A stretch of DNA of 64,000 nt from Xestospongia bergquistia. Taxonomy: Eukaryota > Porifera > Demospongiae > Haplosclerida > Petrosiidae. The translations under genes and the position numbers were made by a program. Location of the stretch: the NCBI GenBank assembly GCA_963965975.1, contig OZ014424.1, positions 4,278,001-4,342,000 of the forward strand, written 5' to 3'. Each line of letters opens with the position of its first letter. Within the stretch, counting starts at the first letter, position 1. Shown in pieces: positions 1 through 64,000 of the stretch. The notes under the pieces were generated by a model. It saw only the letters and a list, made by a program, of their open reading frames with translations. It was not told the DNA's origin and ran no database searches.

Positions 1-54
1 TTATATAGCATAATTATTATAGTTAGACTCTGGTTAATAAAACAGTAACTCAAA
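1..54 (+). promoter_or_regulatory. Proximal promoter module of the methyltransferase family
   Basis: A TATA-like TTATATAGC lies at the window start and is followed by TTATTATAGTTAG, then TTAATAAAACAGTAACTCAAA directly before the ATG at 55. The same module, with small changes, precedes many other copies (around 10690, 17240, 21590, 48568 and 52920; shortened forms before 8124, 9319, 15798, 39635, 40846 and 47055). Its conservation and fixed distance to the ATG suggest a core promoter and 5' UTR copied along with each gene. The functional role is inferred from position only. Confidence 0.5.
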
Positions 55-868
55 ATGGCTACTGACAAGAAAGAGGAGTACAATGACTATGATTGCTTTG
101 ATCCTCTTCTGTACATCAAGAATAAGTATGCAGTAGTCACTGATTGGAATTCTCAACCATTGAAACTATTACACAATATATTCCAGTCTTATGGTTCCAC
201 TCCTGCTGGATTGAAGGTGCTTGAATTTGGGTGTGGTCCTGTACCAATATATCAATGTAGTTCACCACTACATGCATCAGAGATAGTGTTTGCTGAATAT
301 ACTGAAAGAAATCGAAATACTCTACAAATGTGGCTCGACAATGACCCAAATGCACCAGATTTCATAGCACTATTCAAGTATGTTGTACAAAATTTAGAAG
401 GCAAAGGAGAAGAGGAAGTTGTAAAGAGGCAGGATGACTTAAGACGTCTAGTAAAAGGAGTTATACCTTGTGATATATTACGTGATCCTCCTCTTCTAGT
501 TCCTGGTTATGAGGGACCATATGACATTCATTATTTTCTCCAGTCTATGTATAATTAGTGCATGTACTACTCATGAAGAGTATAGTCAATCTATTGGTCG
601 ACTAACAAATTACCTTAAGCCAGGTGGAAAACTAATACTTCAGAGTCTCAAAGCACAGGGAAAGTACTATTACGTTGGATCAGAGACATTCTTTACTCTG
701 AGTGTGACTCCAGAGTTTCTTAATTCTACTTTGAGTGAAAAGGGATACAAAGACATTAGTATTACTGTTCAACCTTGTGAAGGTACTTCAGGTGCTGACA
801 TTGCTTTATCTATGTGTACACCAAGTTCAGTTGACGCTACACTTTTTGTAGTTGCCACTAAGAAGTGA
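55..868 (+). pseudogene. NNMT/PNMT-family methyltransferase, one frameshift
   Basis: Intronless class I SAM methyltransferase reading frame of the NNMT/PNMT/TEMT family. The N-terminal part (55-558) carries the SAM-binding motif VLEFGCGPVPIYQ, the post-I segment FAEYTERN and VIPCD. At about 527 the sequence reads GACATTCATTATTTTC where intact copies have GACATTATTTTC. This CATT duplication shifts the frame, and the rest of the protein continues in another frame to the family C-terminus VATKK at 868. The C-terminal class (KYYYVGSETFF, LSVTPEF) resembles the 22506 and 44672 copies. It is the last member of an array entering from the left. One 4 bp insertion is the only break I see, so a recent pseudogene or a base-call error are both possible. 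Confidence 0.85.
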
Positions 869-1639
869 TTTTTATTAGTAATGATGATTGGATAAGCTTT
901 ATTTTTATAAGACTAGACATAAAAAAGTTATTTACGTAGATTTCATGTACATTTATTGTAAAAGTAGCTATCACATTTATGTGGAAATTTTTAAATGTTC
1001 TCTGTAGTGTTTTGTTGTAACTTCTGTTGTTACTTGTTATGTATATTGTTAATTCTAGTTGGTGAGTATTGCCTTTTTATTTTTAATAACATAACTGTAG
1101 TAGCAACCCTGAATGAGCTTTGCTCACGTTTGTAACATCATGTTAGTAGATGTAGTTGATGGTTATGTACCTACATAATCAGTAGTACATTAGTAATGAA
1201 AATAGCATTATAATTACTTTTTTGACAAAAATAAGTTTGCAATTACAACCTATATAACCAAGTAATAGTTAAATCAACCAAACAATTTTTACAATTGCAG
1301 ATGCTCTAATTTAGAGTTGAATAATTCTTGAACATCACTTTGTAATACGGACACAGGCAGTCTGAACTAGCATGGACATGGCATTAGATTAGCTTGGAGG
1401 AATGAGAGATAGAGAAAGCTTGTCATCCATCGAAGATGGCAGAGAACAAAGAAGAAAAATAGATTGAGAGATAAGCAAGGTGTACAATGCTAAGTAAAGG
1501 AGCTCAAGAAAGAGAGGTAAATTTATAGTAGAGAAGAAAGACAGCAGATTTAAATATTCAAACTATGAGCATTATGAATTTATGGCTGACTGGTCAATGC
1601 TTTGAGCAGTCCATTGGTTATGGGAACCTTCTTTACTAG
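869..1639. other. Intergenic spacer, no gene seen
   Basis: AT-rich spacer. The first 150 bases match the 3' flank of other methyltransferase copies (TAGCTATCACATTTATG and similar). Bases about 1380-1560 resemble the purine-rich stretch upstream of the 19696 and 51026 genes (AGATGGCAGAG...GATTGAGAGATA). I see no convincing coding region. Confidence 0.5.
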
Positions 1640-2646
1640 CATCACATTCCTTTTATCTTCAATATCAACTAATATACTATAATAAGATCACTATTAAGAA
1701 AATATTAGGATGATTTTTTCTATTATATTCTTGTTGTGTATTTATCAACATAGCTCACTCAAGTATTATTATGATACATTTTATTGTATTTAATATTAAT
1801 AAGTCAACTTTCTCAGAGCACACTACAACATCTCAAATAAATAATATCAAAGGTTTGTGGAATATGAAATTTAATATTGACATTTGTTCTTTTAAACAAT
1901 TTGAACCAACCTTAAATATAATTATATGAACATACATAATACATCTATGTTTAATATCCATCTAGGATTTGATTGGTCAGGATATGTACCTGTTAGGTCC
2001 ACCTGGACCACTCTGTTGACATCTCTCTCTTGCCTTTGCTGAGCTAGTAGGGAGAGAAGTTGAGTATGTCACTCTGTCACGAGATACTACAGAAGTGGAT
2101 TTAAAACAAAGGAGGGAAATCATCAATAATACTGTCCATTATATGGATCAGGTATGTCAATGAGAATGGACCAACAGTGGTTTGATAGTAGTTTAATAAT
2201 GGATAGACTGACACAATAATGATACAAGAATTGGTTTTTATTCTTAGACATTATAATAATAGTTCAATATAAAAAGATTTGTAAGGAGTTATAATTATTT
2301 TTGTAGGCTGTTGTATGTGCAGCTGTAGAAGGTCGCGTGTTAATACTGGAGGATTAGAGAAAGCAGAACATAATGTTCTGCCTATCTTGAACAATTTGTT
2401 AGAGAACAGAGAAGCTCAGTTAGACAATGGACAGTTTATCATGTCTCATGAAAGATAAAATAAATTAGCATCAGTAAATCCTTGCAACAAGCAATCTATT
2501 TTATCTCTAACTATCATACCTACAAAAAGATGATATCATGTGTGATTACTAAATGGATGACTTGCTTTTACCTTTTAATAATTATGTTTATCTGTAGGAA
2601 TATTCTCAGGAACAACTGGACTCATGGCATCTTGTTAGAGCTAGTG

Positions 2647-2669
2647 AGAAGTTTAGACTCTAAACTTCT
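2647..2669. repeat. Perfect short palindrome inserted in VWA8 exon 6 copy
   Basis: AGAAGTTTAGA, a single C, then TCTAAACTTCT form 11-base perfect inverted arms. The other VWA8 copies read AGAAGTTTAGAGTG here. The 16 extra bases therefore look like a templated inverted copy of the adjacent sequence, as left by strand switching during replication or end repair. It disrupts the reading frame of this exon. Confidence 0.75.
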
Positions 2670-4689
2670 AAGAGTGATAGCTCTTGGACTCCCTGTCCCT
2701 CCATATCATGGTAATACACTGGACCCTCCACTAAGATCAAGATTTCAGGTATAAACTATATTAGTTCAGCTTAACAATGCGAGAGTATTTTTATAATTAT
2801 GCAGCTAGTAGTTAGTGTTAACAATGACGTTAGTTATATAGGGATTGAAATATTTAGTTTTTGTCATGTTTCCAGAATTATCATAAAACTTAATGTTATA
2901 TTATTAAGTAGTTCTATCCTATCTAATATCACTTCAGTGTTGATACTGTTCTTCCATTTATCTGTTGTTATATATACTTCCTCCTCCATTTCCTGAAGCT
3001 CTACAAGACTTCCTGTACACTTATCCTAACATCCCACAAGACAAGTTATTATAGAGCAATAGCTATTAACAACTATTTAATAAATGAACATTAGATTAGT
3101 TTCCTCTATAGTTTTGATAAATTATTAATATACACAGTTTAACTAGTACTATACTATCATTAAATCATGTATATATGTGAATATGAAGTAAATATTGTTC
3201 ATTTATAGTATATAGGTTAACTACTTTACTGTCTGTTACTTATACAATACACTCACTAACTGGAGGTTACTCTGGAGGACCTATCAATCGTAGTGGACAA
3301 CTAAATAATCTAGTTGATATTTTGGTGAGTTGACTTAGATTTCTTTGTTCAAATAAAAGCATGTTTGATTTAATATAATTTCTATGACATTGTTTCTTGA
3401 CCTATGTGGTACATTACTAAATGTGTACATGTGATTTTAGCTTACTTATGAATGTCATTGTTATCATTATTATAGGCACAAAATCCAGCAGCTGATTTAT
3501 CTGACTCGATACATTCTATGTTTCCAGCTGAACTACTTGGTATGAAACAGACATTGGAAATACATTAGAGGTAAAATGTTGTGATATTAAAGTCCTATGG
3601 ATAGAGGTTCTAACAGAAATAATAGTGAAGTTTTAAATTTGGTGATTTTTAGCAATTTGATGCCTCACTCATGATTATTATCTTCCTTTTACTTCATAAT
3701 TCCCAAACTTTTAACCACCAAATATCATATTTCAAGCAATTTGCCATTCAACAGTATAATAAAACAATAGGAATAACTGACATTTCTATTGGAGAAGAAT
3801 TAATGATGTGCTATTACACTGTGTTTTCTTTATTGCTAGAAATTTGGTATTTCCTCTCAAGGGTCTAGTTTATTTTTAACTGATGATTGATTGACATGTG
3901 CTCCTAATTCAAAAGATCTAATACAAGTCTCGTATCATCAAACTAACTCATCTCAAAATACATCATTATCTGTACCTGGTTATCAAACTGATATCAATGA
4001 TCATACCAATAGTAGGGGTTATGTCAGCCTACCTCATCATCAGTTATTGTTAAGTCAAATGTTACAGAGTCATCTTGTAGGGGATATGTGTCTCATAGGA
4101 CCTAAGGTAATGTAATGATGTATAGTCTGTGTATAGTACATGCACTTCAATATGAATATAGTCATAAGTTCGTATGTCTGCCTACACTAGCTGTTCATTT
4201 TCAAACATTCAAAGTTTAATTCTGCTTGGGAATGGGCGAGAACTACATGTCTATCTTGTGACTTTAATGTTGAGCTCATTATGTAGATTACTGTGTCTAT
4301 AAATAATAGCTTAGCAATTTTGACTATTGATAATCACTTATTTAATATGTGAATAGTTTATAAGCATATATTATACTTATCTTCTCTATTTTTGAGGAAA
4401 CATTACATCTCTACATGTGATACTGGATGGATTTCTTGTCTAGTGTAAAAACTAATGACTAGACTTTCAATTCTCATTTTATATTTATAATCTTTTACTA
4501 TAGGGTAGTGGAAAGTCCACATTAGTCAACCAACTAGCTAATATATTAGGTTATAATACAGAATCAGTTGTTCTTTATCAAGATATGACATCAAGGGATT
4601 TATTACAACAAAGAACTACCCATTCTAATGGAGACACAGGTTGGAGACTAACACCATTTATTACTGCAGCTCTTAATGGACATATAGCA

Positions 4690-5110
4690 GTATTAGATGG
4701 TATTCATAGACTAGATCCTAGTACTATTACCACTCTTAAAAGGTACAGTCTATTACAAAGTAACACTATAGTATTATATAAATGATATTCATAGATTAGA
4801 TCCTTTACCACTGTTTATAGTCCATTATGCTAACATTACCAGATACATGGATTCATAGACTAGATCCTAGTACTATTACCACTCTTAAGAGGTACAGTCT
4901 ATTACAATGTAACACTATATGTATGACAGTATTATATAAATAATATTCATAGATTAGATCCTTTACCACTGTTTATAGTCCATTATACTAACATTACCAG
5001 ATACATGGATTCATAGACTAGACGTCCATTTTACTAATAATACTAGATAATATTTTATAGACTAGATCCTAGCACTATTACCACTCTTAAGAGGTACAGT
5101 TTATAATATA
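4690..5110 (+). repeat. Tandem repeats of VWA8 exon 11 3' end and intron start
   Basis: The segment ATTCATAGACTAGATCCTAG...CTCTTAARAGGTACAGT, the last part of exon 11 plus its splice donor, is repeated three times here (near 4700, 4850 and 5055) with intervening intron sequence. Only the first repeat belongs to a full exon. Equivalent repeats occur in the other copies at 35815-36190 and 60225-60490, so the duplication predates the segmental copies. The extra copies retain splice-donor-like AG|GTACAG. Confidence 0.8.
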
Positions 5111-8059
5111 GTAACCTTATCCATATAACACTATTAGATGGTATACCATACCGCTCTTAAAGTCACTAGTCCAATATTTTAAGACTAATATAGCTGATAT
5201 ATGTTCTTTCCTACTATGCAATAAATGCTTTATGTCACTGTAATGTACTGCCATGATGTTCCTACTAAATACAATAACAAAATGATCAGAGATCAAATAC
5301 CATATAATGAGGATGTTCCAGATAACATAGTATGAATTATTTTTGTTATTACTTTTTAGGTTGATTCAAGATCGTGAGCTTAATCTCACTGATGGTACAC
5401 GATTGTTGAGAGAAGATCGTTATAATGCTTCAATGAAAACTGCCAAATTGACTAACAAAGAAATGACAGAAAGGTATTTGCACAAGTCATACACCAAATA
5501 TCAATTACTTAGTATTTTATTAATGGCTGTGAATTGATGTGAGTTTAATATATAACATAGATTTCATTATATATTACAGTAGATACCTTGTATCACTGTT
5601 CAATAGTTGTTATTGTATCTTGTATCTCTTCTTAGGTCAATCTATCCTATTCATTCTAAGTTTCGTATTGTTGCTATTGGTGAACGTATAGCACAACAGA
5701 TCAATAATACCAAAGGAGATTGGCTAAATCCTGAAGTACTATCTATGTTCCAGTATATTCATGTCACTCCATTACCTCAACATGAAGAGAGACAACTACT
5801 ATTACAAAAAGTATATACAATAATGGTCACACTATATTATATGGTCTATTACTTTAGGTTCCAAAGTTGCCATCAGATATTCTTGATAAACTATTAGACT
5901 TTACTCAATCTCTTAGAATTTCTGATGATCCTATTATAAGTAATACACTTAATATATAAAAATACATTAATGGCTCTCTGTAATGAGTATATACTAGACA
6001 CTAATAGTGGTATAGAAAGAGGAATGGGAACAAGTTTTAAAAACATTTCTATGACTTGCTATTAATATCATTATTAGCTAAGAATGCTATATATTTTTTA
6101 TTATGTATTGTTTTGTCTAATTAATAGTAATGGTTAATTAATTAATTGTTTATATTGTTCTATCTAGATTCAGTCTTTGTCTTCATCACTGTCAACAAGA
6201 CGGCTACTTAGTATAGTTACTCAATTATCTCATTATCCTGAGAATACACACTGTATGATCCTATAATGATAGCATGTTTATCAAGGTATTGTAACATTAG
6301 TAAATTATCATCTTATGACTGAAATGAAATGAATGGATTATCAACATTATTCATCAACATCACAAACATATGTTTTTAGCCCACATCCTATTTTGTATAT
6401 TGACTTAACGAGCTATTTCGAAAGACTCATTTTAGTGATTACATATTCCAAGCCATACCTAATCCATTTTATAATCATTCATGATAACTAATTATAACAA
6501 TAGCACATAGTAATGATAATTATTAAGACTAATACATCCTATGTTCTACCAATTGTCAATTTGTAATAGTTAATCTATTCATAAACATAGATTCTTACCT
6601 TCTATTGCTAAAGCTACTTTATCAAGAGCTTTGTCAAGCCATCATATTTATCCTTCATTACCTACTAGTACTGTACCATCAAATGATACTACATGTAAGT
6701 TATAATTATAAAACTATTTTCCTTATAAGGATAGTAAATAGACTATCTAAACTCTATAGATTCATGATCAAATGATGTATTGTGTATTGGAGCTACTAAA
6801 GTCCCATTATATTCTGATCACAATGATGTTGCTATGGTACCAGATGTGATTTTTTACGATAATCCACTGGTTAGTGAGAAGAGATAGATAGATATATAAA
6901 TATGATCTTAACAAGTCTATAAATGAAAAATCATCTAATGGTTTTGAAATTAAAGATACTGACTTCAAAGTGAAACACTACAAAGATTGTATAGTTAGCA
7001 GCAATGTCAGTGGAAGACTAATAACTATAGAATGACAGAAATATAGAAGGGCAAGCTAGTGAGAATTTTAAGCATTGTTAAATTGAATGAAATTCATTTA
7101 GTTGCTATATACATCAGCAGTTAAAGATGCAATTTAATTTCAAATGCATAATATGGTTAGAGTATCATCCAGTGACATTTTTCTTTTATAAGCTTATCTT
7201 AAAGCCTTGTTGTGAACTAGAAACAACCATGGAACTTAAAGCATAGAAAACCTTATAGGGGTTATTGAGTATAATACCCCAAACTCCTTGGAGTATGGCC
7301 CTATGTACTATTAAATTTATGATTGATTGTTACTCTCCCCAAGAAAAAATTCTACATGAAACTCTGAAATAAAATTTAATTTTTTTGTTTACCGATATTG
7401 TAATATAATGTCTTTGTTTTCTTTTCTATAACATCTTCATTTGTTAGAGGAACTACTAAAAGATTACTCTTTAGGAGAACACCTTATCTTGATAAGAAAT
7501 CAAGGAGTAGGCAAGAACAAACTGGTTGATCGATTACTCCATCTTCCTTGTGAATATCTACAATTACATAGGTATACTGCAATGCAATATATGAATGATA
7601 GATACATGAGCTGACCATGTGATTTGACAACTATTATAATAAGTTATTATTGGACCTCTCTCTAAGCACACCTAACTATTAAACAATTCTCTGAATTAAA
7701 GAGGACATATAGCATTGCATTAGTTAAAAATTAAACTGTTTAAGTTAGTACTCAGATATGAGAGGTTCCTATTGTATCCCATTCATATTTCATTAACTGT
7801 ATGTAGGGATTCAACTGTTCAAACATTGACAACTCAGCCATCTGTGGTTGATGGAAGGATCACTTATCAAGACTCTCCATTGGTTAGATAATAAATACAT
7901 CTAAATGTAATTAAAGTTATAAAAGGAATACCATTTGTACAGTAAAAAGATACTTAGCTGCTCAAACACATGAGGTTTAATATGCATATACTTCCAAATC
8001 AATACAAAATAATTATTAAGTACAACTTATGATTATGTTTCAAGCTGTTACAACTCCTG

Positions 8060-8123: not shown

Positions 8124-8933
8124 ATGGCTACCGACAAAAAAGAGGACTACATGGACTATGATCATTTTGATCCTTTTGTGTACATCAAGAATAGGTATAC
8201 AATAGTCAATGATTGGAACTCTCAGCCATTGAAGCTATTACACAATATATTCCAGTCTTATAGTTCCACTCCTGCTGGATTGAAGGTGCTCGATTTTGGC
8301 TGTGGCCCTGTACCAATATATCAATGTAGTTCACCACTACATGCGTCAGAGATAGTGTTTGCTGAATATACTGAAAGAAATCGAAATACTCTCCAAATGT
8401 GGCTTGACAATGATCCCAAGGCACCAGATTTTACAGCACTATTCAAGTATGTTGTACAAGATTTGGAAGGCAAAGGAGAAGAGGAAGTTGTAAAGAGACA
8501 GGATGACTTAAGACGTCTTGTAAAAGGAGTTATACCTTGTGATGCATTACATGATCCTCCTCTTCTAGTTCCTGGTTATGAGGGACCATATGACATTATT
8601 TTCTCCAGTCTATGTTTAACTGCTGCTTGTACTACTCATGAAGAGTATAGTCAAGCTATTGGTCGACTAACAAAGTACCTTAAACCAGGTGGAAAACTAA
8701 TTCTTCAGGGTCTCCGGCCAAAGGAAGACTCAGAGTATCTCTATTATTATGTTGGATCAGAGAAATTCTTAGGTCTATGTGTGACTCCCGAGTTTCGTAA
8801 ATCTGCTTTGATTGAAAATGGATATACAGATATTAGTGTTACTGTTCAACCTCGTGAAGGTATTTCAGGTGCTGACACTGCTATATCTAGCTCTGTTGAT
8901 GCTACAGTTTTTACGGTTGCGACTAAGAAGTGA
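8124..8933 (+). CDS. NNMT/PNMT-family SAM-dependent methyltransferase, copy a
   Basis: Whole, intronless 269-residue protein, close to the roughly 264 residues of human NNMT. Visible parts: FDPFVYIKNRY near residue 15 (region of the SAM/substrate-contacting Tyr of NNMT); motif I VLDFGCGPVPIYQ (55-67); the acidic post-I end FAEYTERN (79-86); PCD at 138-140; SSLCLTAAC (161-169), aligned with STLCLDAAC of NNMT; LKPGG at 186-190. The family transfers a methyl group from SAM to small amines or N-heterocycles in the cytosol. The nicotinamide-contacting Asp of NNMT (its MDAL segment) is replaced here by LQGL (194-197), so the substrate is probably not nicotinamide. The start is the conserved ATGGCTAC context after the family promoter. 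Its unit 2 partner is at 39635. Confidence 0.9.
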   Translation: MATDKKEDYMDYDHFDPFVYIKNRYTIVNDWNSQPLKLLHNIFQSYSSTPAGLKVLDFGCGPVPIYQCSSPLHASEIVFAEYTERNRNTLQMWLDNDPKAPDFTALFKYVVQDLEGKGEEEVVKRQDDLRRLVKGVIPCDALHDPPLLVPGYEGPYDIIFSSLCLTAACTTHEEYSQAIGRLTKYLKPGGKLILQGLRPKEDSEYLYYYVGSEKFLGLCVTPEFRKSALIENGYTDISVTVQPREGISGADTAISSSVDATVFTVATKK

Positions 8934-9318: not shown

Positions 9319-10124
9319 ATGGCTACTGACAAAAAAGATGACTACAATAAGCGTTTTGATCCTTTTGTGTACATCAAGAATAAGTATACAGTAGTCACTG
9401 ATTGGAACTCTCAACCATTGAAACTATTACACAATATATTCCAGTCTTATGGTTCTACTCCTGCTGGATTGAAGGTGCTTGAATTTGGCTGTGGCCCTGT
9501 ACCAATATATCAATGTAGTTCACCACTACATGCATCAGAGATAGTGTTTGCTGAATATACTGAAAAAATCGACACACTCTACAAATGTGGCTCGACAATG
9601 ACCCAAATGCACCAGATTTCACACCACTATTCAAGTATGTTGTTCAAGATTTGGAAGACAAAGGAGAAGAGGAAGTTGTAAAGAGACAGGATGACTTAAG
9701 GCGTCTTGTAAAAGGAGTTATACCTTGTGATATAGTATGTGATCCTCCTCTTCTAGTTCCTGGTTATGAGGGACCATATGACATTATTTTGTCCAGTTTA
9801 TGCATACCTAATGGTTGTACAAGTTGTGAAGAGTATAGTCAAGCTATTGGTCGGCTAACAAAGTACCTTAAACCAGGCGGAAAAATAATACTTCAAAGTT
9901 TCCGTCCACTGGGAGACTCAGAATTCATCCATTATTCTATTGGGTCAGGAAAATTTGTTGCTTTGAGTGTGACACCAGAGTTTCAGAATTCTGTTTTGAG
10001 TGAAAATGGATACAAGGATATTACTATTACTATTCAACCTTTTGAAGGTATTTCTGGTATTGACACAGCTGTAATCTGTGACTCAGTTGATGCTACAGTT
10101 TTTACAGTTGCAACTAAGAAGTAA
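9319..10124 (+). pseudogene. NNMT/PNMT-family methyltransferase, copy b, one frameshift
   Basis: Member of the NKRFDPF subgroup. Frame 1 runs from the ATG at 9319 through motif I (VLEFGCGP) to about 9568, where ACTGAAAAAATCGAC stands for the usual ACTGAAAGAAATCGAC. The 1-base loss shifts the frame, and the remaining 180 codons continue to the normal VATKK end at 10124. The C-terminal half has the subgroup features SLCIPNGCTSCEEY and FRPLGDSEFIHYSIGSGKF. No other lesion is seen. The collinear unit 2 gene (40846-41652) is open, so this is a one-lesion pseudogene or a sequence error. Confidence 0.87.
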
Positions 10125-10746: not shown

Positions 10747-11262
10747 ATGGCTACTGACAAGAAAGAGGACTACATGGTCTATGATTGTTTTGATCATTTT
10801 GTGTTCATCAAGAATAAGTATGCAGTAGTCAATGATTGGAACTCAGTCATTGAAACTATTACACAATATACCCTATACCAGTCTTATGGTTCCACTCCTG
10901 CTGGATTGAAGGTGCTTGATTGGGGCCCTGTATTAATATATATCAATGTAGTTCACCACTACTAGTGTCAGTGATAGTGTTTGCTGAATATAGTGAAAGA
11001 AATCAAAATACTCTACAAATATGACTTGATAATGACCCAAATGCACTAGATTTCACAGCACTATTCAAGTATGTTGTACAAGATTTTGAAAGGAAAGAAA
11101 TAGTTGAAGTTGTAAAGAGGCAGGATGACTTACGATATCATGTAAAAGGAGTTATACCTTGTGATATATTACGTAATTCTCCTCCTTTAGTTCCTGGTTA
11201 TGAGAGACCATATGACATTATTTTTCTCTAGTCTATGTTTAATTATCACTTGTACTACCAAT
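10747..11262 (+). pseudogene. Decayed methyltransferase copy c
   Basis: Starts with the normal ATGGCTACTGACAAG and keeps FDHFVFIKNKYAVVNDW. It then has an indel near codon 33, lacks the FGCG part of motif I (VLDWGPV), and has Trp to stop at the QMWLDN position (ATATGACTTG). Further frameshifts follow. Similarity ends at about 11262, where the sequence switches into VWA8 intron 2 DNA. It is an old, multiply broken copy. Partners are 17301 (same array) and 42138 and 48637 (unit 2). Confidence 0.85.
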
Positions 11263-12270
11263 GTATCTGGCTATGACCTTCTACTTAAATTTAATCCATG
11301 CATGGTGACTGCTGATGTGCATGATAATTAACAGATTTAAGTATTTAAACCATGAACATTATGAATTTAAGGCTGACTGGTTAATGCTTTGAGCAGTCCA
11401 TAGGTTATGGAAACCTTCTAAATTAGTATCACATTCCTTTTGACTCTCTAATCTTCAATATCAGTGAATACAGTTACAATAAAACCACTATTAAGGAAAT
11501 ATTGGAGTGATTTTTTTCTAATATATTCTTGTAGTGTTTGTAGTTATCAATATAGCTCATTCAAGTATTATTATGATACATTTTATTGTATTTAAACATT
11601 TCTTTAGTAAAAGTCGACTTTCTCAGAGCACACTACAGCATCTCAAATAAATACTATCAAAGGTTTATGGAATATGAAATTAACATTGACATTTGTTCTT
11701 TTAAATAGCTTAAATCAATCAATGAACACACATATTACATGTATGCTTTAATATCCATCTAGGGTTTGATTGGTCAGGACACGTACCTGTTGGGTTCATC
11801 TGGACCACTCTTTCAACATCTCTCTCTCTTGCCTCTGCTGAGCTAGTAGGGTGAGAAGTTGAGAGTTGGAAGACATATCAATCTTAGTAGAAAACTAAAT
11901 AATCTAGTTGGTATATTGGTGAGTTGACTGTGATTCGTTTTGTTCAAATAAAAGCATGGTTGATTTAATATAATTTATATGACATTGTTTCTTTGTACAT
12001 TACTATATATATACATGTGATCTTAGCTTACTTATGAATATTATTATTATTATTACCATAGACACAAAATCCAGCAGCTGATTTATCTGCTTTGATACAT
12101 TCTGTGTTTCCAGCTGAACTACTTGGTATGAAAGAGACATTGGACAATATATTAGAGGTAATGTGTTGTGATATTAAAGTGGTGTGGATAAAGTTTCTAT
12201 TAGAAATAATAGTGAAGTTTTAAATTTGGTGATTTTTAGCAAATTTGATGTCTTACTCATGATTATTAAA
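11263..12270 (+). pseudogene. VWA8 fragment: intron 2 to intron 9 with exon 4/exon 8 deletion
   Basis: Begins with TATCTGGCTATGACCTTC, found in VWA8 intron 2 (29854 on). It contains exon 3 (Trp codon changed to TAA) and the first half of exon 4, then jumps at GAAGTTGAG to the second half of exon 8 (GGA...ACATATCAATCTTAG), followed by exon 9 and the start of intron 9. Exons 5 to 7 are missing. The same internal junction occurs in the fragments at 17821, 42366 and 49149, so all four descend from one deleted ancestor. This copy has also lost about 150 bases of intron 9. Confidence 0.85.
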
Positions 12271-44640: not shown

Positions 44641-44671
44641 AAATAATAGGTAGGTGTCATGACAACCCAAA

Positions 44672-48636: not shown

Positions 48637-49148
48637 GTGGCTACTGACAAGAAGAGGACTACATGGTCTATGATTGTTTTGATCCTTTTGTGTACATCAA
48701 GGATAAGTATGCAGTAGTCAATAATTGGAACTCTCAGTCATTGAAACTATTACACAATATATTCCAGTCTTATGGTTCCACTCCTGCTGGATTGAAGGTG
48801 CTTGATTTTGGTTGTGACCAATATATCAATGTAGTTCACCACTACATGTGTCAGTGATAGTGTTTGCTGAATATAGTGAAAGAAATCAAAATACTCTACA
48901 AATGTGACTTGATAATGACCCAAATGCACCAGATTTCACAGCACTATTCAAGTATGTTGTTCAAGATTTGCAAAGGAAAAGGAAATAGTTGAAGTTGTAA
49001 AGAGGCTGGATGACTTAAGATATCATGTAAAAGGAGTTATACCTTGTGATATATTATGTAATTCTCCTCCTTTAGTTCCTGGTTATGAGAGACCATATAA
49101 CATTATTTTTCTCTAGTCTATGTTTAATTATCACTTGTACTACCAATG
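48637..49148 (+). pseudogene. Decayed methyltransferase copy g'
   Basis: The initiator is GTG (48637), as in 17301. A 1-base loss (GACAAGAAGAGGAC) shifts the frame at once. VLDFGCD is followed by a deletion (GACCAATATATC), and Trp to TGA occurs at QMWLDN. Similarity runs to the shared VWA8 junction. Confidence 0.85.
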
Positions 49149-52984: not shown

Positions 52985-53245
52985 ATGGCTACTGAACAGG
53001 GCCACAGCCAAAATCAATCACCTTCAATACAGCAGGAGTGGAACCATAAGACTGGAACATATTGTGCAAAAGGTTCAATTGCTGAGAGTTCCAATCAATC
53101 ACTATACTACATATTTATCGTTGATAAACACAAAAGGATCAAAACAATCATAGACTGTGTGCTGATTATACTGAAAAAGAATCAAAATATTCTACAAATG
53201 TGGCTTGACAATGATCCCAATGCTCCAGGTCTTTTCATATTATGA
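52985..53245 (+). pseudogene. Methyltransferase copy l' with internal inversion, open hybrid frame
   Basis: Same inversion as 21644. Here the frame from ATG is open for 86 codons. It reads MATE from the sense start, then about 55 residues from the antisense strand (GHSQNQSPSIQQEWNHKTG, SIAESSNQ), then returns to sense with NQNILQMWLDNDPNAPG before ending LFIL. Promoter module and start context are those of the family. No known domain; motif I is inverted, so it cannot be a methyltransferase. It is either a decaying copy that is open by chance or a young chimeric peptide gene. Confidence 0.75.
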
Positions 53246-53846: not shown

Positions 53847-54650
53847 ATGGCTACTGACAAAAAAATGGATTACATGGACTATGATCGTTTTGATCCTTTT
53901 GTCTACATCAAGAATAAGTTTACAGTAGTCAATGATTGGACCTCTCAGCCATTGAAGCTATTACACAATATATTCCAGTCTTACGGTTCCACTCCTGCTG
54001 GATTGAAGGTGCTTGATTTTGGATGTGGCCCTGTACCAATATATCAATGTAGTTCACCACTACATGCATCGGAGATAGTGTTTGCTGAATATAGTGAAAG
54101 AAATCGAAATACTCTCCAAATGTGGCTTGACAATGATCCCAATGCACCAGATTTTACAGCACTATTCAAGTATGTTGTTCAAGACTTGGAAGGCAAAGGA
54201 GAAGATGAAGTTGTAAAGAGACAGGACGACTTAAAACATCTTGTAAAAGGAGTTATACCTTGTGATATATTACATGATCCTCCTCTTCTAGTTCCTGGTT
54301 ATGAGGGACCATATGACATTATTTTCTCCAGTCTATGTATAACTGCTGCTTGTACTACTCATGAAGAATTTAGTCAAGCTATTGGTCGACTAACAAAGTA
54401 TGTTAAACCCGATGGAAAGCTAATTCTTCTGACTGTGCAATCGCCAGGAAGGCACCACTATTATTACGTTGGATCAGAGAAATTCTTCTCTCTGAGTGTG
54501 ACTCCAGAGTTCCTTAATTCTACTTTGAGTGAAAATGGATACAAAGATATTAGTATTACTGTTCAACCTCGTGATGGTACTTCAGGTGCTGACATTGCTC
54601 TTCCTAAGTCACTTGATGCTATACTTTTTGTAGTTGCCACTAAGAAGTGA
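53847..54650 (+). CDS. NNMT/PNMT-family methyltransferase, copy i'
   Basis: Whole 267-residue protein of the NDWTSQ subgroup. It starts MATDKKMDYMDYDRFDPF, with VLDFGCGPVPIYQ, FAEYSERNRN, VIPCDILHDPP, LCITAACTTHEEF, VKPDGK (the usual PGG changed to PDG) and LLTVQSPGRHHYYYVGSEKF. It mixes traits of 22506 (HEEF, full N-terminus) and 27438 (VKP, ILH), which fits a single ancestor of both. Unit 2 has no MULE or second copy here. Confidence 0.9.
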   Translation: MATDKKMDYMDYDRFDPFVYIKNKFTVVNDWTSQPLKLLHNIFQSYGSTPAGLKVLDFGCGPVPIYQCSSPLHASEIVFAEYSERNRNTLQMWLDNDPNAPDFTALFKYVVQDLEGKGEDEVVKRQDDLKHLVKGVIPCDILHDPPLLVPGYEGPYDIIFSSLCITAACTTHEEFSQAIGRLTKYVKPDGKLILLTVQSPGRHHYYYVGSEKFFSLSVTPEFLNSTLSENGYKDISITVQPRDGTSGADIALPKSLDAILFVVATKK

Positions 54651-55865: not shown

Positions 55866-58800
55866 ATGTTCAGGTTGTCTATAGAAAGAATCATGGCTAA
55901 AAATGCTCCAGAAAGACGTTTATTACAACTTCGAGGAGTATTAAGTCCTAAGATTGAGATAAGAATGTGTAGTAATAAGGACAATGGAAAGAATGGTGAG
56001 CCTGTACTACTGATACATGATGTTCTGAATATATCATTTGTTGTAACATTCCAAGTCAGTTGTTTATTATTAAAACATTGAGTAAAACAAGCCAGTAGAA
56101 GAAGACTAGGAGGTGTGGCAGCTGTTGCCAGACTATATATACTGTATAGCAGAAAAACTATCCCAATTTTCAAATCAGGAAATTTTGACAAATCTGCAAA
56201 ATTTTGCTACCATATTCATAATTATTGCATTCATTTTTGGCAGTGGTTATTTGAACGTGACTAGCATCTTATAAATTTTTCTAACTTAGTTCAGAATTTA
56301 AGAAAAAGATTCCTAGACTTTAAACCGTAAACTCTTGACTGTGCGATTAACAGACAGTAGTCTCCCCTAACATGCTTTTACATATTCTATAGAGTAACCT
56401 TTAATGATAATTTCAATTTAAAAGAACAACAATTAACAATGTTTAGAGAATGGGACGAAAAAATTAGATAAAAAGGTGAAAGTGTAATCAAATCTGCTTC
56501 TGCCATCCCGAAGCTCATATTTAACTACTCAACTAACCAGGACCACATTGAATAAATTGCTTTCAAAGTAAGTTTTTAAGTGAAAGTGAGAAACTTATGA
56601 ATATTAATTATAACCATGCTTGTTGATTGTATCATGTGGATTGACCAATCAGAATGAAGTGCTGGTTAAATAGCCAAAATTTATAATGTTGTTGTTCATG
56701 GTCAAATAACGACTTTCTTCATTTTTTAACCAGAGAAGCACCATTTTGAAAGTTGAAACAATTAAATATAATAAATTTAATATTGTTGTTGTTATAGGAG
56801 GTGACTCCATTAATATCGGTGGAGTAAGTGTTCCTATTAATATCCCATCAAGTCCAGAACTTGTTCCTAAATTATATAGTAAGTTAAGAGATTTGTCCAC
56901 TATATCATATGACTCGACAATATACATGTAAGGAACATGGCCTGTATTACATATGAAAACATTCATAATTGCACTCAAATTTTGTCTTGTATATTTTAAA
57001 TGCCACATGGTCCTATCTGGCTATGACCTACTTAAATTTAATCCATGCATGCTGACTGATGACGTGCATGATAATTAACAGATTTAAGTACTCAAAGTGT
57101 GAGCATTATGAATTTAGGGTTGACTGGTCAATGCTTTGAGCAGTCCATAGGTTATGGAGACCTTCTTTACCAGTATCACATTCCTTTTGACTCTCTAATC
57201 TTCAATATCAGTGAATACAGTTACAATAAAATCACTATTAAGGAAATCTTGGGGTGATTTTTTCTAATATATTCTTGTAGTGTTTGTATTTATCAATATA
57301 GCTCATTCAAGTATTATTATGATACATTTTATTGTATTTAAACATTTCTTTAGTAAAAAGTCGACTTTCTCAGAGCACACTGCAGCATCTCAAATGGATG
57401 ATATCAAAGGTTTGTGGAATATGAAACTAACATTGACACTTGTTCTTTTAAATAATTTGATCTAATCATTCTTTTATTATCAAATAGATTAATATGAACA
57501 TACTTATTACATGTATGCTTTAATATCCATCTAGGATTTGATTGGTCAGGACATGTACCTGTTAGGTCCACCTGGACCACTCTGTCGACATCTCTCTCTT
57601 GCCTTTGCTGAGCTAGTAGGGAGAGAAGTTGAGTATGTCACTCTGTCACGAGATACTACAGAAGTGGATTTAAAACAAAGGAGAGAGATCATCAATAATA
57701 CTGTCCATTATATGGATCAGGTATGTCAATGAGAATGGATCAACAGCGTTTGATAGTAGTTTAACAATGGATAGTGACACAATGATGATACAATAATTGT
57801 TTTCTATTTTCATACATTATAATAACAATAATCCAATATGAAAATATTTGTAAGGAGTTATAATTATTTTTGTAGGCTGTTGTACGTGCAGCTGTAGAAG
57901 GTCGCGTGTTAATACTGGAAGGATTAGAGAAAGCAGAACGTAATGTTCTACCTATCTTGAACAATTTGTTAGAGAACAGAGAAGCTCAGTTAGATGATGG
58001 ACGGTTTATCATGTCTCATGAAAGATATGATAAATTAGCATCAGTAAGTCCTTGCAACAAGTAATATATTTTATCTCTAACTATCATACCTATAAAAAGA
58101 TGATACCATGTGTGAGTACTAAACAGATGACTTGCTTTTACCTTTTAATAATTATGTTTATCTGTAGGAATATTCTCAGGAACAACTGGACTCATGGCAA
58201 CTTGTTAGAGCTAGTGAGAAGTTTAGAGTGATAGCTCTTGGACTCCCTGTTCCTCCATATCATGGTAACACACTGGATCCTCCACTAAGATCAAGATTTC
58301 AGGTATAAACTATATTAGTTCAGCTTAACAATGCAAAAGTATTGTTATATTGAGCAACTAATTGGCTTATAGTTAGCGATAATAATAACATTAGTTATAT
58401 AAGGTTGAAATATTTAGTTTTTGTCATGTTTTCAGAATTATCATAAACTTAATGTTATATTATTAGGTAGTTCTATCTCCTATCTAATATCACTTCAGTG
58501 TTGATACTGTTCTTTCCATTTATCTGTTGTTAGGCTAGACATATACTTCCTCCTCCATTTCCTGAAGCTCTACAAGACTTCCAGTACACTTATCCTAACA
58601 TCCCACAAGACAAGTAATTATAGAACAATAGCAATTAACTACTATTTAATAAATGAACATTACATTAGTTTCCTCTATAGTTTTGATAAATTATTATTAA
58701 TATACACAGTTTAACTAGTATTATCATTAAATCATATATGTACTGAATATGAAGTAAATGTTGTTCATTTATAGTATATATATATATATATATATTAGGT

Positions 58801-61800
58801 TAACTACTTTATTGTCTGTTGCTTATACAATACACTCACTAACTGGAGGTTACTCTGGAGGACCTATCAATCTTAGTGGACAACTAAATAATTTAGTTGA
58901 TATTTTGGTGAGTTGACTTAGATTTCTTTTGTTCAAATAAAAGTGTGGTTGATTTAATATAATTTCTATGACATTGTTTCTTTGTACATTACTATATATA
59001 TACATGTGATCTTAGCTTACTTATGAATATCATTGTTATTATTACCATAGACACAAAATCCAGCAGCTGATTTATCTGACTTGATACATTCTGTGTTTCC
59101 AGCTGAACTACTTGGTATGAAACAGACATTGGACAATATATTAGAGGTAATATGTTGTGATATTAAAGTGGTATGGATAGAGTTTCTATTAGAAATAATA
59201 GTGAAGTTTTAAATTTAGTGATTTTTTAGCAATTTGATGCCTCACTCATGATTATTATCTTCCTTTTACTTCATAATTCCCAAACTTTTAACCACCAAAT
59301 ACCATATTTCAAGCAATTTGCCATTCAACAGTATAATAAAACAACAAGAATAACTGACACTTCTATTGGAGAATTAATGATGTGCTATTACACTGTGTTT
59401 TCTTTATTGCTAGAAATTTGGTATTTCCTCTCAAGGCTCTAGTTCATTTTTAACTGACAATCAATTGACATGTGTTCCTAATTCTAAAGATCTATTACAA
59501 GTCTCGTATCATCAAGCTAACTCATCTCAAAATATATCATTCTCTGTACCTGGTTATCAAACTGAAATCAATGATGATATCAATAGTAGGGGCTATGTCA
59601 GTCTGCCTCATCATCAGTTACTGTTAAGTCACATGTTACAGAGTCATCTTGTAGGAGATATATGTCTCATAGGACCTAAGGTAATGTAATGATATATAGT
59701 TTGTATGTAGTACATGTACTTAAATGATGAATGTGCCATCCTATTTCATTCTGCTTGGGAATTAGCCAGAACTACATGTCTATCATTATCTTGTGACTTT
59801 AATGTTGAACTGACTATGTGGATTACTGTGTCCATAAATAATAGCTTAGCTATCTTGACTATAGATAATCACTTATTTAATATGTGAATAGTTTATAAGC
59901 GTATATTATACTTATCTTCTCTATTTTTGAAGAAACATTACATCTCTACATGTGATACTGGATGGATTTCTTGTCTAGTGTAAAAACTAATGACTAGACT
60001 TTCAATTCTCATTCTATAGTTATAATCTTTTACTATATAGGGTAGTGGAAAGTCCACATTAGTCAACCAACTAGCTAATGTGTTAGGTTATAATACAGAA
60101 TCAGTTGTTCTTTATCAAGATATGACATCAAGGGATTTATTACAACAAAGAACTACCCATTCTAATGAAGACACTGGTTGGAGACTAACACCACTTATTA
60201 CTGCAGCTCTTAATGGACATATGGCAGTATTAGATGGTATTCATAGACTAGATCCTAGTACTATTACCACTCTTAAAAGGTACAGCCTATTACAAAGTAA
60301 CACTATACATATGACAGTATTATATAAATGATATTCATAGATTAGATCCTTTACCACTGTTTATAGTCCATTATACTAACATTACCAGATACATGTATTC
60401 ATAGACTAGACATCCATTTTACTAATAATACTAGATAATATTTTATAGACTAGATCCTAGCACTATTACCACTCTTAAGAGGTACAGTTTATAATATAGT
60501 AACCTTATCCATATAACATTATTAGATGGTATACCATACCACTCTTAAAGTCACTAGTCCAATATTTTAAGACTATATTAGCTGATATATGTTCTTTCGT
60601 ACTATGCAATAAATGCTTTATGTCACTGTAATGTACTGCCATGATGTTCCTACTAAATACAATAATAAAATGATCAGAGATCAAATACCATATAATGAGG
60701 ATGTACCAGATAACATAGTATGAATTATTTTTGTTATTACTTTTTAGGTTGATTCAAGATCGTGAGCTTAATCTCACTGATGGTACACGATTGTTGAGAG
60801 AAGATCGTTATAATGCTTCAATGAAAACTGCCAAATTGACTAACAAAGAAATGACAGAAAGGTATTTGCACAAGTCATACACCAAATATCAATTACTTAG
60901 TTTTTTTATTAATGGTTGTGAATTGATGTGAGTTTAATATATAACATAGATTTCATTATATATTACAGTAGATACCTTGTATCACTGTTCAATAGTTGTT
61001 ATTGTATCTTGTATCTCTTTTTAGGTCAATCTATCCTATTCATTCTAAGTTTCGTATTGTTGCTATTGGTGAACGTATAGCACAACAGATCAATAATACC
61101 AAAGGAGATTGGCTAAATCCTGAAGTACTATCTATGTTCCAGTATATTCATGTTACTCCATTACCTCAACATGAAGAGAGACAACTACTATTACAAAAAG
61201 TATATATAATAATGGTCACATTATATTATATGGTCTATTACTTTAGGTTCCAAAGTTGCCATCAGATATTCTTGATAAACTATTAGACTTTACTCAATCT
61301 CTTAGAATTTCTGATGATCCTATTGTAAGTAATACACTTAATATATAAAAAGACACTTAATGGCTCTCTGTCATGAGTATATACTAGACACTAATAGTGG
61401 TATAGAAGGAGGAACCGGGATAAGTTTAAAAACAGTTTCTATGACTTGCTATTAATATCATTATTAGCTAAGAATGCTATATATTTTTTATTATGTATTG
61501 TTTTTTCCAATTAATAGTAATAGTTAATTAATTAATTGTTTATATTGTTCTATCTAGATGCAATCTTTGTCTTCATCACTGTCAACAAGACAGCTACTTC
61601 GTATAGTTACTCGATTATCTCATTATCCTGAAGACACACTGTATGATGCTATAATGAGAGCATGTTTATCAAGGTATCATTACAAATATCATTTTATGAC
61701 TGAAATGAAATAAATGGATATATCAACATTATTTCCATGTTTATGGCTCATCACAAACATAAGTTTTTAGCCCACATCTTTTTGTGTATATTGACTTAAT

Positions 61801-62514
61801 TAACTATTTAAAAAAACCTCAGATTTAGTGATTACATATTCCAAGTCATGCTTAATTTATTTTATAATCATTCATGATAACTAATTATAACAATAGCACA
61901 TAGTAATGATAATTATTAAGACTAATACATCCTTTACTATTGCAATTATCAATTTGTAATAGTTAATCTTTTCATATACATAGATTCTTACCTTCTATTG
62001 CTAAAGCTACTTTATCAAGAGCTTTGTCAAGCCATCATATTTATCCTTCATCACATATCAATACTGTACCATCAAATGATACTACATGTAAGTTATAATT
62101 ATAAATCTATATTCCTTATAAGGATAGTAAATGTGACATAGATTATCTAAACTCTATAGATTCAAGAGCAAGTGGTGTATTGCATATTGGAGCTACCAAA
62201 GTCCCATTACATTCTGATCACAATGATGTTGCTATGGTACCAGATGTGATATTTTATGATAATCCACTGGTTAGTGAGAGGAGATAGATAGATAAATTTG
62301 ATCTTAACAAGTCTATAATTGAAAAATAATCTTCTAATTGTTTTGAACAGAAGTATAAAAGGGTAAGCTAGTGAGAAGTTTTAAGCATTGTTAGATTAAA
62401 TGAAATTCATTTAGTTGCTATATACATCAGAAGTTAAAGGATGCAATTTAATTTCATTCGAACCTCTCAAAAGTTACATATATATATATATATATATATA
62501 TACAATATATACAA

Positions 62515-62565
<51 letters not shown>

Positions 62566-63944
62566 ATATATATTATATATTAAATTATGAAGACAAACAT
62601 ACCAATATATATAGTTAACATGTGGTCCAAAATGATTATAGGGCCATCTGGCACACACAGCATGCCAGTCAGAGAAAGTAGTTGTTTATCTAAGCCACTA
62701 GCAATTTAATGTTGATGCTGACATGAAACTACCTTCCATCTGTATCAAGAAATAGGACTGATGCCAATTTAGTTAAATGCAGAGTTTCATGCTGAGAGTG
62801 AATGGTCTTGGAACCATCCTCTCTCTCTTTAAGGTTGTAATATCAAGTAGATAACAAGCACATGTGTGATTATGAGATTTTAATAATGCATAATATGGTT
62901 AGAATAAGCCTTGTTGTACACTAGAAACAACCACGGAACTTAAAGCATAGAAAACCTTATAGGGGCTATGGAGTATATACCCCAGACTCCTTGGAGTACG
63001 GCCCGATGTACTGTTATCTTTATGATTGAATGTTCCTCACCTCCCCTCCCCCCCCCCCCCCAAAAAAAAATCCTACATGAAACTCTGGAATGAGATAATG
63101 CCAATTTAGAGTTTCATATAGAGAGGGAATTGAAGATTGTAATACCAAGTTGATCATAACAAGCACATGTGTATTATGACATTTAGTAATGCATAACACA
63201 GTATCATCCAATGACATTTTTCTTTTAAAAGCTTATCTTAAAAGCCTTGTTGTGCACTAGAAACAATCATAGAACTGAAAGCATAGAAAAGCTTATAGGG
63301 GCTATTGAATATAATACTCCAGATTCCTTGGAGTGGTGTGTGGCCTTATATACTCAAATTTATGATTGATTGTTCCTCTCCACCCTCCCCACCCCCTACC
63401 CCCCACCCCCAAGAAAAGCCCTATGTGAAACTCTGAAATGAGATTTTGTTTACTAATATTATAATATAGTGTATTTGTTTTCTATAGCATCTTCATTTGT
63501 TAGAGGAACTACTAAAAGATTACTCTTTAGGAGAACACCTTCTCTTGATAGGAAATCAAGGAGTAGGCAAGAACAAACTGGCTGATCGATTACTCCATCT
63601 TCTTCATGCTCCTCGTGAATATCTACAATTACATAGGTATACTGCAATACAATATATGAATGATAGATGAACTGACTGTACTGATTTGACAATTATTATA
63701 ATAAGTTATAATGGGACCTCTCTCTAAGGACACCTAATTATTAAACTATTCTCTGAATTAAAGAGGACACATAGCATTGCATTAGTTAAAAGTTAGACTG
63801 ATTAAGTTAGTACTCAGATATGAGAGGTTCCTATTGTATCCTATTCATATTTCATTAACTGTATGTAGGGATTCAACTGTTCAAACATTGACAACTCAGC
63901 CATCTGTGGTTGATGGAAGGATCACTTATCAAGATTCTCCATTG
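55866..63944 (+). CDS. VWA8: VWA8, mitochondrial AAA+ ATPase, exons 1-19 (runs off right edge)
   Basis: Exons: 55866-55995, 56798-56878, 57354-57409, 57535-57720, 57876-58043, 58168-58302, 58534-58613, 58799-58907, 59051-59146, 59414-59680, 60041-60279, 60748-60861, 61025-61199, 61247-61324, 61558-61673, 61984-62087, 62160-62269, 63488-63636, 63869-63944. They sum to 2469 bases, 823 codons, in phase, with GT..AG borders. Collinear with human VWA8 from its N-terminus to DSPLV. Exon 1 has a basic presequence-like start (MFRLSIERIMAKNAPERRLL). Exon 4 holds a degenerate loop LGPPGPL; exons 10/11 a full Walker A (GPKGSGKST) followed by VLYQDMTSRDLLQQR and AVLDGIHRLD; exon 18 a third loop GNQGVGKNK. 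VWA8 is a dynein-like AAA protein of the mitochondrial matrix side, with a C-terminal VWA domain expected beyond the window. The start is the first ATG in frame with exon 2. This is the only copy here without lesions. Confidence 0.92.
56045..56653. other. About 610-bp extra segment in VWA8 intron 1 of unit 2
   Basis: Unit 1 passes directly from CATTTGTTGTATGAAGTGCTG (29485 on) while unit 2 has about 610 bases between CATTTGTTGTAACATTCC and CAGAATGAAGTGCTG. I see no coding region or clear terminal repeats in the insert. It is either an insertion in unit 2 or a deletion in unit 1. Confidence 0.6.
60225..60490 (+). repeat. Tandem repeats of VWA8 exon 11 3' end
   Basis: The exon 11 end (60232-60279) is repeated in the following intron near 60450 (GACTAGATCCTAGCAC...CTCTTAAGAGGTACAG), with a partial piece near 60395. 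It has fewer repeats than the units at 4690 and 35815. A duplicate donor AG|GTACAG is kept. Confidence 0.75.
62476..62582. repeat. (TA)n microsatellite in VWA8 intron 17
   Basis: A long run of TA dinucleotides with short CAATATA interruptions. Shorter TA runs occur in intron 7 of the VWA8 copies (near 31589, 34326 and 58776). Not present at this position in the other copies. Confidence 0.9.
62880..63440. repeat. Tandem duplication within VWA8 intron 17
   Basis: The block AAGCCTTGTTGT...CTAGAAACAA, ATAGGGG..., ACTCCTTGGAGT, TCATGAAACTCTGRAATGAGAT occurs once in the copies at 7200-7380 and 38280-38450 but twice here (about 62908-63095 and 63240-63445). Each repeat carries a cytosine-rich tract (a long C run at 63047-63060 and a CCCCAC-rich stretch at 63385-63412), absent from the other copies. 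Confidence 0.7.
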
Positions 63945-64000
63945 GTTAGATAATAAATACATCTAAATGTAATTAAAGTTATAAAAGGAATACCATAGTT

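What the first reader, a model, noticed from the sequence alone, without database searches (positions are those of the whole stretch)
1..64000. Nested segmental duplication: [methyltransferase array + VWA8 5' half] repeated, with a smaller duplication inside each array
Copies occur in the same order in two arrays (8124-28223 and 39635-54650): a, b, c, VWA8 fragment, Ulp1-PHD, d, e, f, g, VWA8 fragment, h, k with hAT, inverted l, i. Each array is followed by VWA8 5' exons. Within each array the block 'NKRFDPF gene, decayed gene, VWA8 fragment' recurs at about 6.2-6.5 kb spacing. This is a growing gene factory seeded next to a single-copy mitochondrial ATPase. An allelic-haplotype tandem misassembly is a caveat, but the truncated VWA8 copies argue for true duplication.
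Basis: seen in the sequence. Interest (0 to 1): 0.75.

Follow-up and report, generated by a model that had tools for sequence, protein, structure and literature searches.

The report
Methyltransferase array grown from VWA8 intron
In an animal chromosome, a small-molecule methyltransferase gene that sits inside an intron of the VWA8 gene appears to have been copied again and again together with the front half of VWA8, leaving broken VWA8 fragments and a row of enzymes that differ most in the pocket that holds their substrate.

Summary
The nested duplication is real and part of a larger structure. In the host genome (146 Mb, unnamed) the array spans about 115 kb of C14, 49 kb past the window's left edge, with 52 methyltransferase (PF01234) stretches, 17 intact.

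VWA8 is complete once (window 55866 to about 75342). Exons 1-17 recur in broken copies; exons 18 onward were found once. The complete gene holds two decayed methyltransferases inside intron 17. Six of six copies that keep exon 17 run into that intron and then a same-strand methyltransferase, so the array most likely grew from a nested gene.

Two alleles cannot give six copies with shared lesions. None of seven unit pairs exceeds a 98% median identity, so "growing" is unsupported.

Not in the finding: among the 17 intact enzymes, variation concentrates at the substrate pocket (entropy 1.39 vs 0.38 bits; 0 of 200,000 permutations), while cofactor residues hold. The acid at position 167, needed in vertebrate INMT, is absent from all 17. 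Best reading: diversifying N-methyltransferases; substrates unknown, positive selection unproven.

The parts
55..865 (+). decayed methyltransferase, end of the left pair of arrays (167-aa ORF)
1545..7934 (+). VWA8 partial copy D (exons 3-17), pseudogene; ends in intron 17
   Evidence: exon map; 4 stops and 4 frameshifts; homology to 32764-39011 93.2%
8124..8933 (+). intact methyltransferase a (269 aa), directly after VWA8 exon 17 plus 241 bp of intron
9319..10121 (+). decayed methyltransferase b
10747..11262 (+). methyltransferase c, cut at 172 aa and joined to VWA8 intron 2
11264..12268 (+). VWA8 fragment E (intron 2/exon 3 joined to exons 6-7)
13452..14205 (+). decayed methyltransferase d
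14587..15385 (+). decayed methyltransferase e
15798..16595 (+). intact methyltransferase f (265 aa)
17301..17819 (+). truncated methyltransferase g
17821..18991 (+). VWA8 fragment F, same fusion as E
19696..20499 (+). methyltransferase h, interrupted (197-aa ORF)
20808..21143 (-). hAT transposase dimerisation-domain remnant
   Evidence: Pfam PF05699
21654..21811 (-). inverted methyltransferase piece l (copy at 52995-53152)
22506..23309 (+). intact methyltransferase i (267 aa)
25235..25861 (+). ZSWIM/MULE-type transposase ORF between the two i-type genes of the first array
   Evidence: PF21056 above cut-off, PF10551 below cut-off
27438..28223 (+). intact methyltransferase i' (261 aa)
28302..32768 (+). 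VWA8 partial copy G: upstream region plus exons 1-8; frameshifts in exon 8
32768..32769 (.). junction of the about 31-kb tandem duplication: VWA8 intron 8 joined to intron 2 with 2-bp TA microhomology
32769..39011 (+). VWA8 partial copy H (exons 3-17), pseudogene
39635..40435 (+). intact methyltransferase a (266 aa), after exon 17 and 675 bp of intron
40846..41652 (+). intact methyltransferase b (268 aa)
42136..42364 (+). methyltransferase c fragment beside VWA8 fragment I
42366..43537 (+). VWA8 fragment I, same fusion as E
44672..45475 (+). intact methyltransferase d (267 aa)
45845..46642 (+). decayed methyltransferase e
47055..47861 (+). intact methyltransferase f (268 aa); structure modelled
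48648..49147 (+). truncated methyltransferase g
49149..50302 (+). VWA8 fragment J, same fusion as E
51026..51832 (+). intact methyltransferase h (268 aa)
52995..53152 (-). inverted methyltransferase piece l
53847..54650 (+). intact methyltransferase i (267 aa), about 1.2 kb upstream of VWA8 exon 1
55866..64000 (+). complete VWA8 gene (copy K), exons 1-17 and start of intron 17; continues outside the window to about 75342 (C14:4353342)

Best explanation
An NNMT-type methyltransferase gene without introns came to lie inside intron 17 of VWA8. Repeated tandem duplications with breakpoints in that intron or in the copied 5' part amplified [front half of VWA8 + methyltransferase] upstream of the gene and left the last VWA8 copy complete. 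The VWA8 halves are passengers that decayed. The methyltransferases went through birth, death and re-duplication in blocks; about a third of the stretches are still intact and under purifying selection overall, while their substrate-pocket positions diversified. Shown: the map, the nesting in the complete gene, the shared lesions, the junction, the pocket concentration. Inferred: that nesting came first, the order of events, that selection rather than relaxation drives the pocket, and that the enzymes methylate different small molecules.
For: VWA8 exons 1-17 recur, exons 18 onward occur once in the fetched 204 kb and once among the 26 scored of 68 candidates genome-wide. Intron 17 of the complete gene is 63945-67307 (GT..AG, phase 0) and holds methyltransferase pieces 64239-64484 and 64893-65693; 63945-66017 is array-like and 66018-67307 had no hit in the 204 kb. 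Six of six copies that keep exon 17 continue into 241-678 bp of that intron and then a + strand methyltransferase. Six of six larger partial VWA8 copies have stops or frameshifts, with lesions shared in pairs B/D, G/H, A/C. The junction at 32768 is non-homologous. 17 of 52 methyltransferase stretches are intact; maximum-likelihood omega 0.46 overall, 0.29 in 142 N-terminal codons, 1.14 at nine pocket codons. Pocket entropy 1.386 vs 0.379 bits, 0 of 200,000 permutations. The model is NNMT-like, pLDDT 90.3, best PDB hit NNMT 7nbq, TM 0.83.
Against: No other species' VWA8 locus could be examined, so nesting as the starting state rests on the six copies alone. Related copies on C4 and C3 carry no VWA8 exon, so the family's first home may be elsewhere. 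Both methyltransferases now inside the complete gene are dead, and one groups with the array's h genes, so it may be a later arrival. Omega between broken VWA8 copies is 0.37-0.75, not 1. Pairwise omega at the nine pocket codons is 0.87 with bootstrap 0.38-2.13, and synonymous difference is raised there too (0.34 vs 0.19), so positive selection is not demonstrated. No expression data.
Confidence: 0.68

Rival explanations
1. Allelic haplotypes were laid end to end by the assembler; the two arrays are two alleles.
For: No read data could be seen.
Against: Exon 17 is present in six copies and exon 9 in four, more than two alleles allow. Shared lesions show that already broken copies were copied. 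The 32768 junction joins non-allelic positions, and the 204 kb has no N. Protein clusters whose longest contig is listed as 1,169,527 bases, not C14, include genes at -10613, 55, 39635, 47055 and 53847; whether that version is independent is unknown.
Confidence: 0.07
2. The array arose upstream of VWA8 by itself; VWA8 pieces and the intronic copies came in later by rearrangement.
For: An i-type gene sits about 1.2 kb upstream of VWA8 exon 1; C4 and C3 copies exist without VWA8 exons; the intronic copy 64893 groups with h genes.
Against: Six of six exon-17 copies share the same exon 17-intron-methyltransferase order and strand, which is simplest with one ancestral arrangement.
Confidence: 0.2
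3. Pocket variation is relaxed constraint on redundant copies, not functional diversification.
For: Pocket omega near 1 with a wide bootstrap; many decayed siblings; the acid at 167 is absent in 17 of 17.
Against: Cofactor positions 85 and 90 are invariant and 142 is kept in 16 of 17 of the same genes; omega 0.29 in 142 N-terminal codons; pocket positions 20 and 204 stay Tyr or Phe; 12 different pocket signatures in 17 intact genes.
Confidence: 0.3

Closest known systems
NNMT/PNMT/TEMT (INMT) family, PF01234
   Same: Pfam match of the two array proteins tested, fold, cofactor-site residues, single-domain enzymes of 261-272 aa
   Different: Best structural match is only 27% identical; acid 167 absent in 17 of 17; Asp197, which binds the nicotinamide amide (PMC7918612, passages), present in 4 of 17; single open frames in a dense array
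VWA8 (von Willebrand factor A domain-containing protein 8)
   Same: Listed database proteins named VWA8 match the joined exon peptides of copy K at 44-53% identity (120 of 1504 hits listed)
   Different: One complete copy with nested enzyme genes and several broken 5' copies upstream
RCCX-type modular duplication (C4-CYP21-TNX; recalled, not from a call)
   Same: Tandem modules that carry truncated copies of a neighbouring gene, with the complete gene at one end
   Different: Here the amplified gene lies inside the truncated gene's intron, and modules are nested and unequal
Detoxification-type enzyme expansions (GST, UGT, P450; recalled)
   Same: Tandem birth and death with variable substrate sites
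   Different: NNMT family; none of the listed papers describes such an array, by title and abstract start

Membership tests
PF01234 NNMT/PNMT/TEMT methyltransferases | Match above Pfam cut-off | tested here: met
   130.3 and 121.8 bits vs cut-off 25 for the two array proteins tested; 59 of 60 genome matches over cut-off, many on C14
PF01234 NNMT/PNMT/TEMT methyltransferases | NNMT-like fold | tested here: met
   Model pLDDT 90.3; the 50 listed PDB hits are NNMT entries (3rod titled only Methyltransferase), query TM 0.78-0.84
PF01234 NNMT/PNMT/TEMT methyltransferases | Cofactor-site residues (85 acidic, 90 Asn, 142 Asp; positions recalled) | tested here: met
   17/17, 17/17 and 16/17
NNMT/INMT/PNMT as vertebrate enzymes | Acidic residue at 167, needed for activity of INMT (PMC10844679, passages) | tested here: not met
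   0 of 17 array genes; 4 of 35 sequences of A1, seven of which are array genes
NNMT/INMT/PNMT as vertebrate enzymes | Methylates nicotinamide or an arylalkylamine | not testable with these tools
   no assay
VWA8 | Long match to VWA8 including AAA and VWA parts | tested here: met
   P0042 residues 79-1804, with gaps, along 57535-75342; listed relatives of the joined exon peptides are named VWA8. Exons 1-2 were read by eye; 5 of 31 splice junctions were not resolved
Functional VWA8 gene | Open frame in partial copies | tested here: not met
   6 of 6 larger partial copies broken; the four small fragments E, F, I, J were not scored
Allelic misassembly | At most two versions of each segment | tested here: not met
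   six copies of exon 17
Allelic misassembly | Half read depth | not testable with these tools
   no reads

The most novel reading that the evidence does not exclude
The locus is a chromosomally anchored, natural library of small-molecule N-methyltransferases. The cofactor-binding front part is kept alike among copies (by selection and perhaps gene conversion), while six pocket positions (167, 168, 197, 198, 201, 213), five of them among those that protein engineers mutate in human NNMT, are varied to make 12 different pockets in 17 genes. The nested position in a housekeeping gene's intron lets duplication proceed without harming the host gene, because the last copy stays whole. It would serve chemical defence or signalling chemistry of the animal.
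Probability: 0.25. Interest if true: 0.75.

Novelty: new variant of a known kind. Interest (0 to 1): 0.5.

Why it matters
It shows how a gene nested in an intron can seed a large tandem array while sparing its host: a duplication ending in the intron leaves the last host copy whole, and the discarded 5' halves record the events. If the pocket result holds at the bench, one locus offers a ready panel of natural N-methyltransferases that vary at positions engineers change in human NNMT (PMC12402838, passages), and a lead to animal-made methylated small molecules.

Tried and rejected
NAHR between methyltransferases as the only mechanism was my first model. It was dropped for the duplication that made the window's two arrays, because the 32768 junction has only 2 bp of contiguous microhomology. 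It remains possible for the inner blocks and for the hybrid methyltransferase 64239-64484.

Treating copies G and H as independent VWA8 copies was rejected: they are the two ends of one duplicated unit.

Finding the VWA8 C-terminus with Pfam VWA models listed no match in this gene; exon reading and P0042 found it.

Naming the organism failed. Sponge genome notes (14 listed of 16, titles and abstract starts) gave no match to 146.46 Mb, and one search found no paper. A sponge is my guess only. The search for a mitochondrial COX1 gene did not complete.

A first pocket list of ten positions was recalled (omega 0.95, bootstrap 0.30-2.50). It was replaced by the published list of PMC7918612, 9 of whose 11 residues fall in the aligned span (omega 0.87, bootstrap 0.38-2.13); I had already seen the variable columns before reading that list. 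The 10-codon pocket-plus-loop set (omega 1.40) and the six-position signature were chosen after seeing the data and carry no statistical weight.

Rfam and tRNA scans of the window gave no match.
Full report
Setting. The window is C14:4278001-4342000 of an unnamed eukaryote genome of 146.46 Mb in 21 contigs. Window position x is C14 position 4278000 + x; zero and negative numbers are left of the window. I fetched 80 kb to the left and 60 kb to the right; the joined 204 kb has no N.

Self-comparison shows two arrays in the same order, 8124-28223 and 39635-54650, each followed by VWA8 5' exons, and the inner block [b, c, VWA8 fragment] = [f, g, VWA8 fragment] within each. The structure is larger than the window: methyltransferase matches run from about -49.2 kb to 65.7 kb. 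A second pair of arrays lies to the left (-47581..-40841 vs -15960..-9241 at 96.3%; -28083..-22454 vs -4721..939 at 94.7%; -22457..-18731 vs 1182..4865 at 94.6%). The gene tree (32 of the 52 array stretches plus 5 sequences from C3 and C4; 20 stretches left out, two of them over 500 bp) pairs the genes accordingly; several deeper nodes have bootstrap support below 50.

What the genes are. The methyltransferases belong to PF01234, NNMT/PNMT/TEMT. A model of one (35-sequence alignment, mean pLDDT 90.3) matches NNMT structures best (TM 0.83, 27% identity). I count 52 methyltransferase stretches in the 204 kb, 49 on the + strand; 17 have an ATG-to-stop frame of at least 261 aa, 10 of them in the window. 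The large gene is VWA8: listed proteins named VWA8 match its joined exon peptides, and P0042, an unnamed 1804-aa relative, can be followed with gaps from 57535 to 75342. Exons 1-2 upstream were read by eye and recur in copies A and G. Five of 31 introns were not resolved by my simple splice search.

The nesting. Exons 1-17 recur in partial copies; exons 18 to the end occur once in the 204 kb and once among the 26 scored of 68 genome-wide candidates. Intron 17 of the complete gene runs 63945-67307 in phase 0 with GT and AG ends. It contains an internally deleted methyltransferase (64239-64484) and a longer one (64893-65693) that has lost its start and has an early stop. From 63945 to 66017 it resembles the array; 66018-67307 had no hit in the 204 kb at the settings. 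In six of six copies that keep exon 17, whole or in part (A, B, C, D, H and the complete K), 241-678 bp of the same intron follow and then a + strand methyltransferase. I infer that a methyltransferase was already in intron 17 when the first VWA8 half was copied.

How the units formed. The unit 1634-32768 is repeated from 32768 to about 59908. The junction joins VWA8 intron 8 to intron 2 of another VWA8 copy with a 2-bp overlap, TA. One tandem duplication therefore made both arrays of the window and the two VWA8 pieces that touch at 32768. The seven large pairs compared show gap-free median identity of 96.4-98.0%; single 250-bp windows range from 84.8 to 100%. Six of six larger partial VWA8 copies (A, B, C, D, G, H) have stops or frameshifts, and pairs share lesions: B and D, G and H, A and C. 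Broken copies were copied again. The four small VWA8 fragments share one fusion (exon 3 region joined to exons 6-7, beside a cut methyltransferase c or g), so they too stem from one rearrangement. Omega between partial copies and the complete gene is 0.39-0.60, and among B, D, G and H 0.37-0.75. Values below 1 between broken copies mean that part of their difference arose under constraint, or that conversion with the complete gene went on; they do not date the deaths.

Alleles or duplicates. Six copies of exon 17, shared lesions and a gapless non-allelic junction cannot come from two alleles alone. Protein clusters whose longest contig is listed as 1,169,527 bases include sequences identical to genes at -10613, 55 (a 167-aa piece), 39635, 47055 and 53847, while proteins identical to those at -48468 and -34879 are listed with a 533,465-base contig. 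So another version of the sequence exists; I cannot tell whether it is independent. Read depth was not available, so a minority of units being allelic is not excluded.

Selection. Pairwise omega over the 17 intact genes is 0.455; the maximum-likelihood single omega is 0.46 for all 267 codons, 0.29 for 142 N-terminal codons, 0.46 for 71 C-terminal non-pocket codons and 1.14 for nine pocket codons. The pocket list is that of human NNMT in PMC7918612 (passages read): Tyr20, Tyr24, Leu164, Ala168, Asp197, Ala198, Ser201, Tyr204, Ser213, Tyr242, Ala247; nine fall within the aligned span. Their mean entropy is 1.386 bits against 0.379 for all 221 aligned columns (0 of 200,000 permutations), and 1.64 (seven positions) against 0.64 within the C-terminal 79 columns (15 of 200,000). 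With 11 non-redundant genes the counts are 0 and 30 of 200,000. A set of 12 cofactor-site columns (recalled) shows 0.255, no excess. Against this: I had seen the variable columns before reading the list; the alignment has an insertion between 198 and 201; Tyr24 is Lys or Arg in all 17; synonymous difference is also raised at the nine pocket codons (0.34 against 0.19) and in the C-terminal part (0.256 against 0.145); pairwise omega at the nine codons is 0.87 with bootstrap 0.38-2.13. Gene conversion in the front part would give the synonymous pattern too. So diversification is shown, adaptive diversification is not.

What the pocket says. The 17 genes carry 12 different signatures at positions 167, 168, 197, 198, 201 and 213, a set I chose after seeing the data. 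Position 167 is Glu in INMT and PNMT and Asp in NNMT, and the E167A mutant of INMT was deficient in methylation (PMC10844679, passages); it is acidic in 0 of 17 array genes, in 0 of the 4 related genes checked on C4 and in 4 of the 35 sequences of alignment A1, seven of which are array genes. Asp197, which binds the nicotinamide amide (PMC7918612), is present in 4 of 17. So nicotinamide is an unlikely common substrate. [quoted passage not shown] here it is the reverse. Engineers of human NNMT saturated Y20, Y24, L164, 167, D197, 198, 201, Y204, S213, 242, 247 and 249 (PMC12402838, passages), a set that contains five of the six variable positions (not 168).

Literature. Searches for sponge or invertebrate NNMT arrays and for nested-gene tandem arrays (10 listed of 27, 5 of 5, 9 of 9) listed nothing that describes such a locus, by titles and abstract starts. 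PMC12833800 (passages) reports a sponge alkaloid gene bundle; NNMT does not occur in its main text.

Verdict. The finding is real, larger than described and better explained as an array seeded from within VWA8 intron 17. The most interesting part was not in the finding: a set of enzymes whose differences sit in the substrate pocket.

Noticed in passing
64239-64484 (outside the window, C14:4342239-4342484): A short methyltransferase whose first about 140 bp are joined to its last about 100 bp through 8 bp, still an open frame of 82 aa; looks like a recombination or deletion product.
   Followed up: partly
25235-26646: ZSWIM/MULE-type transposase ORF and further open pieces between the two i-type methyltransferases of the first array; no counterpart in the second array among the unit alignments.
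   Followed up: partly
C4:8561370-8567791: A second, more distant cluster of NNMT-like genes on C4 with three open frames about 54% identical to the array; also lacks the acid at 167.
   Followed up: partly
C4:6693909-6697161 and C3:7451074-7451896: Array-like methyltransferases with shared flanks but no VWA8 exon; one open frame intact on C4. Source or offshoot of the array is undecided.
   Followed up: partly
C14:4377060-4382912 and 4394433-4400274 (window 99060-104912, 116433-122274): A 5.9-kb duplication at 91% identity to the right of VWA8, content not examined.
   Followed up: no
C6 1.15-1.19 Mb, C7 3.19-3.28 Mb, C12 6.81-6.85 Mb, C2 10.6-11.3 Mb: Groups of VWA-domain matches elsewhere in the genome, not part of this gene.
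   Followed up: no
whole array: Synonymous difference among intact genes is lower in the N-terminal part (0.145) than in the C-terminal part (0.256), as gene conversion of the front part would give.
   Followed up: partly
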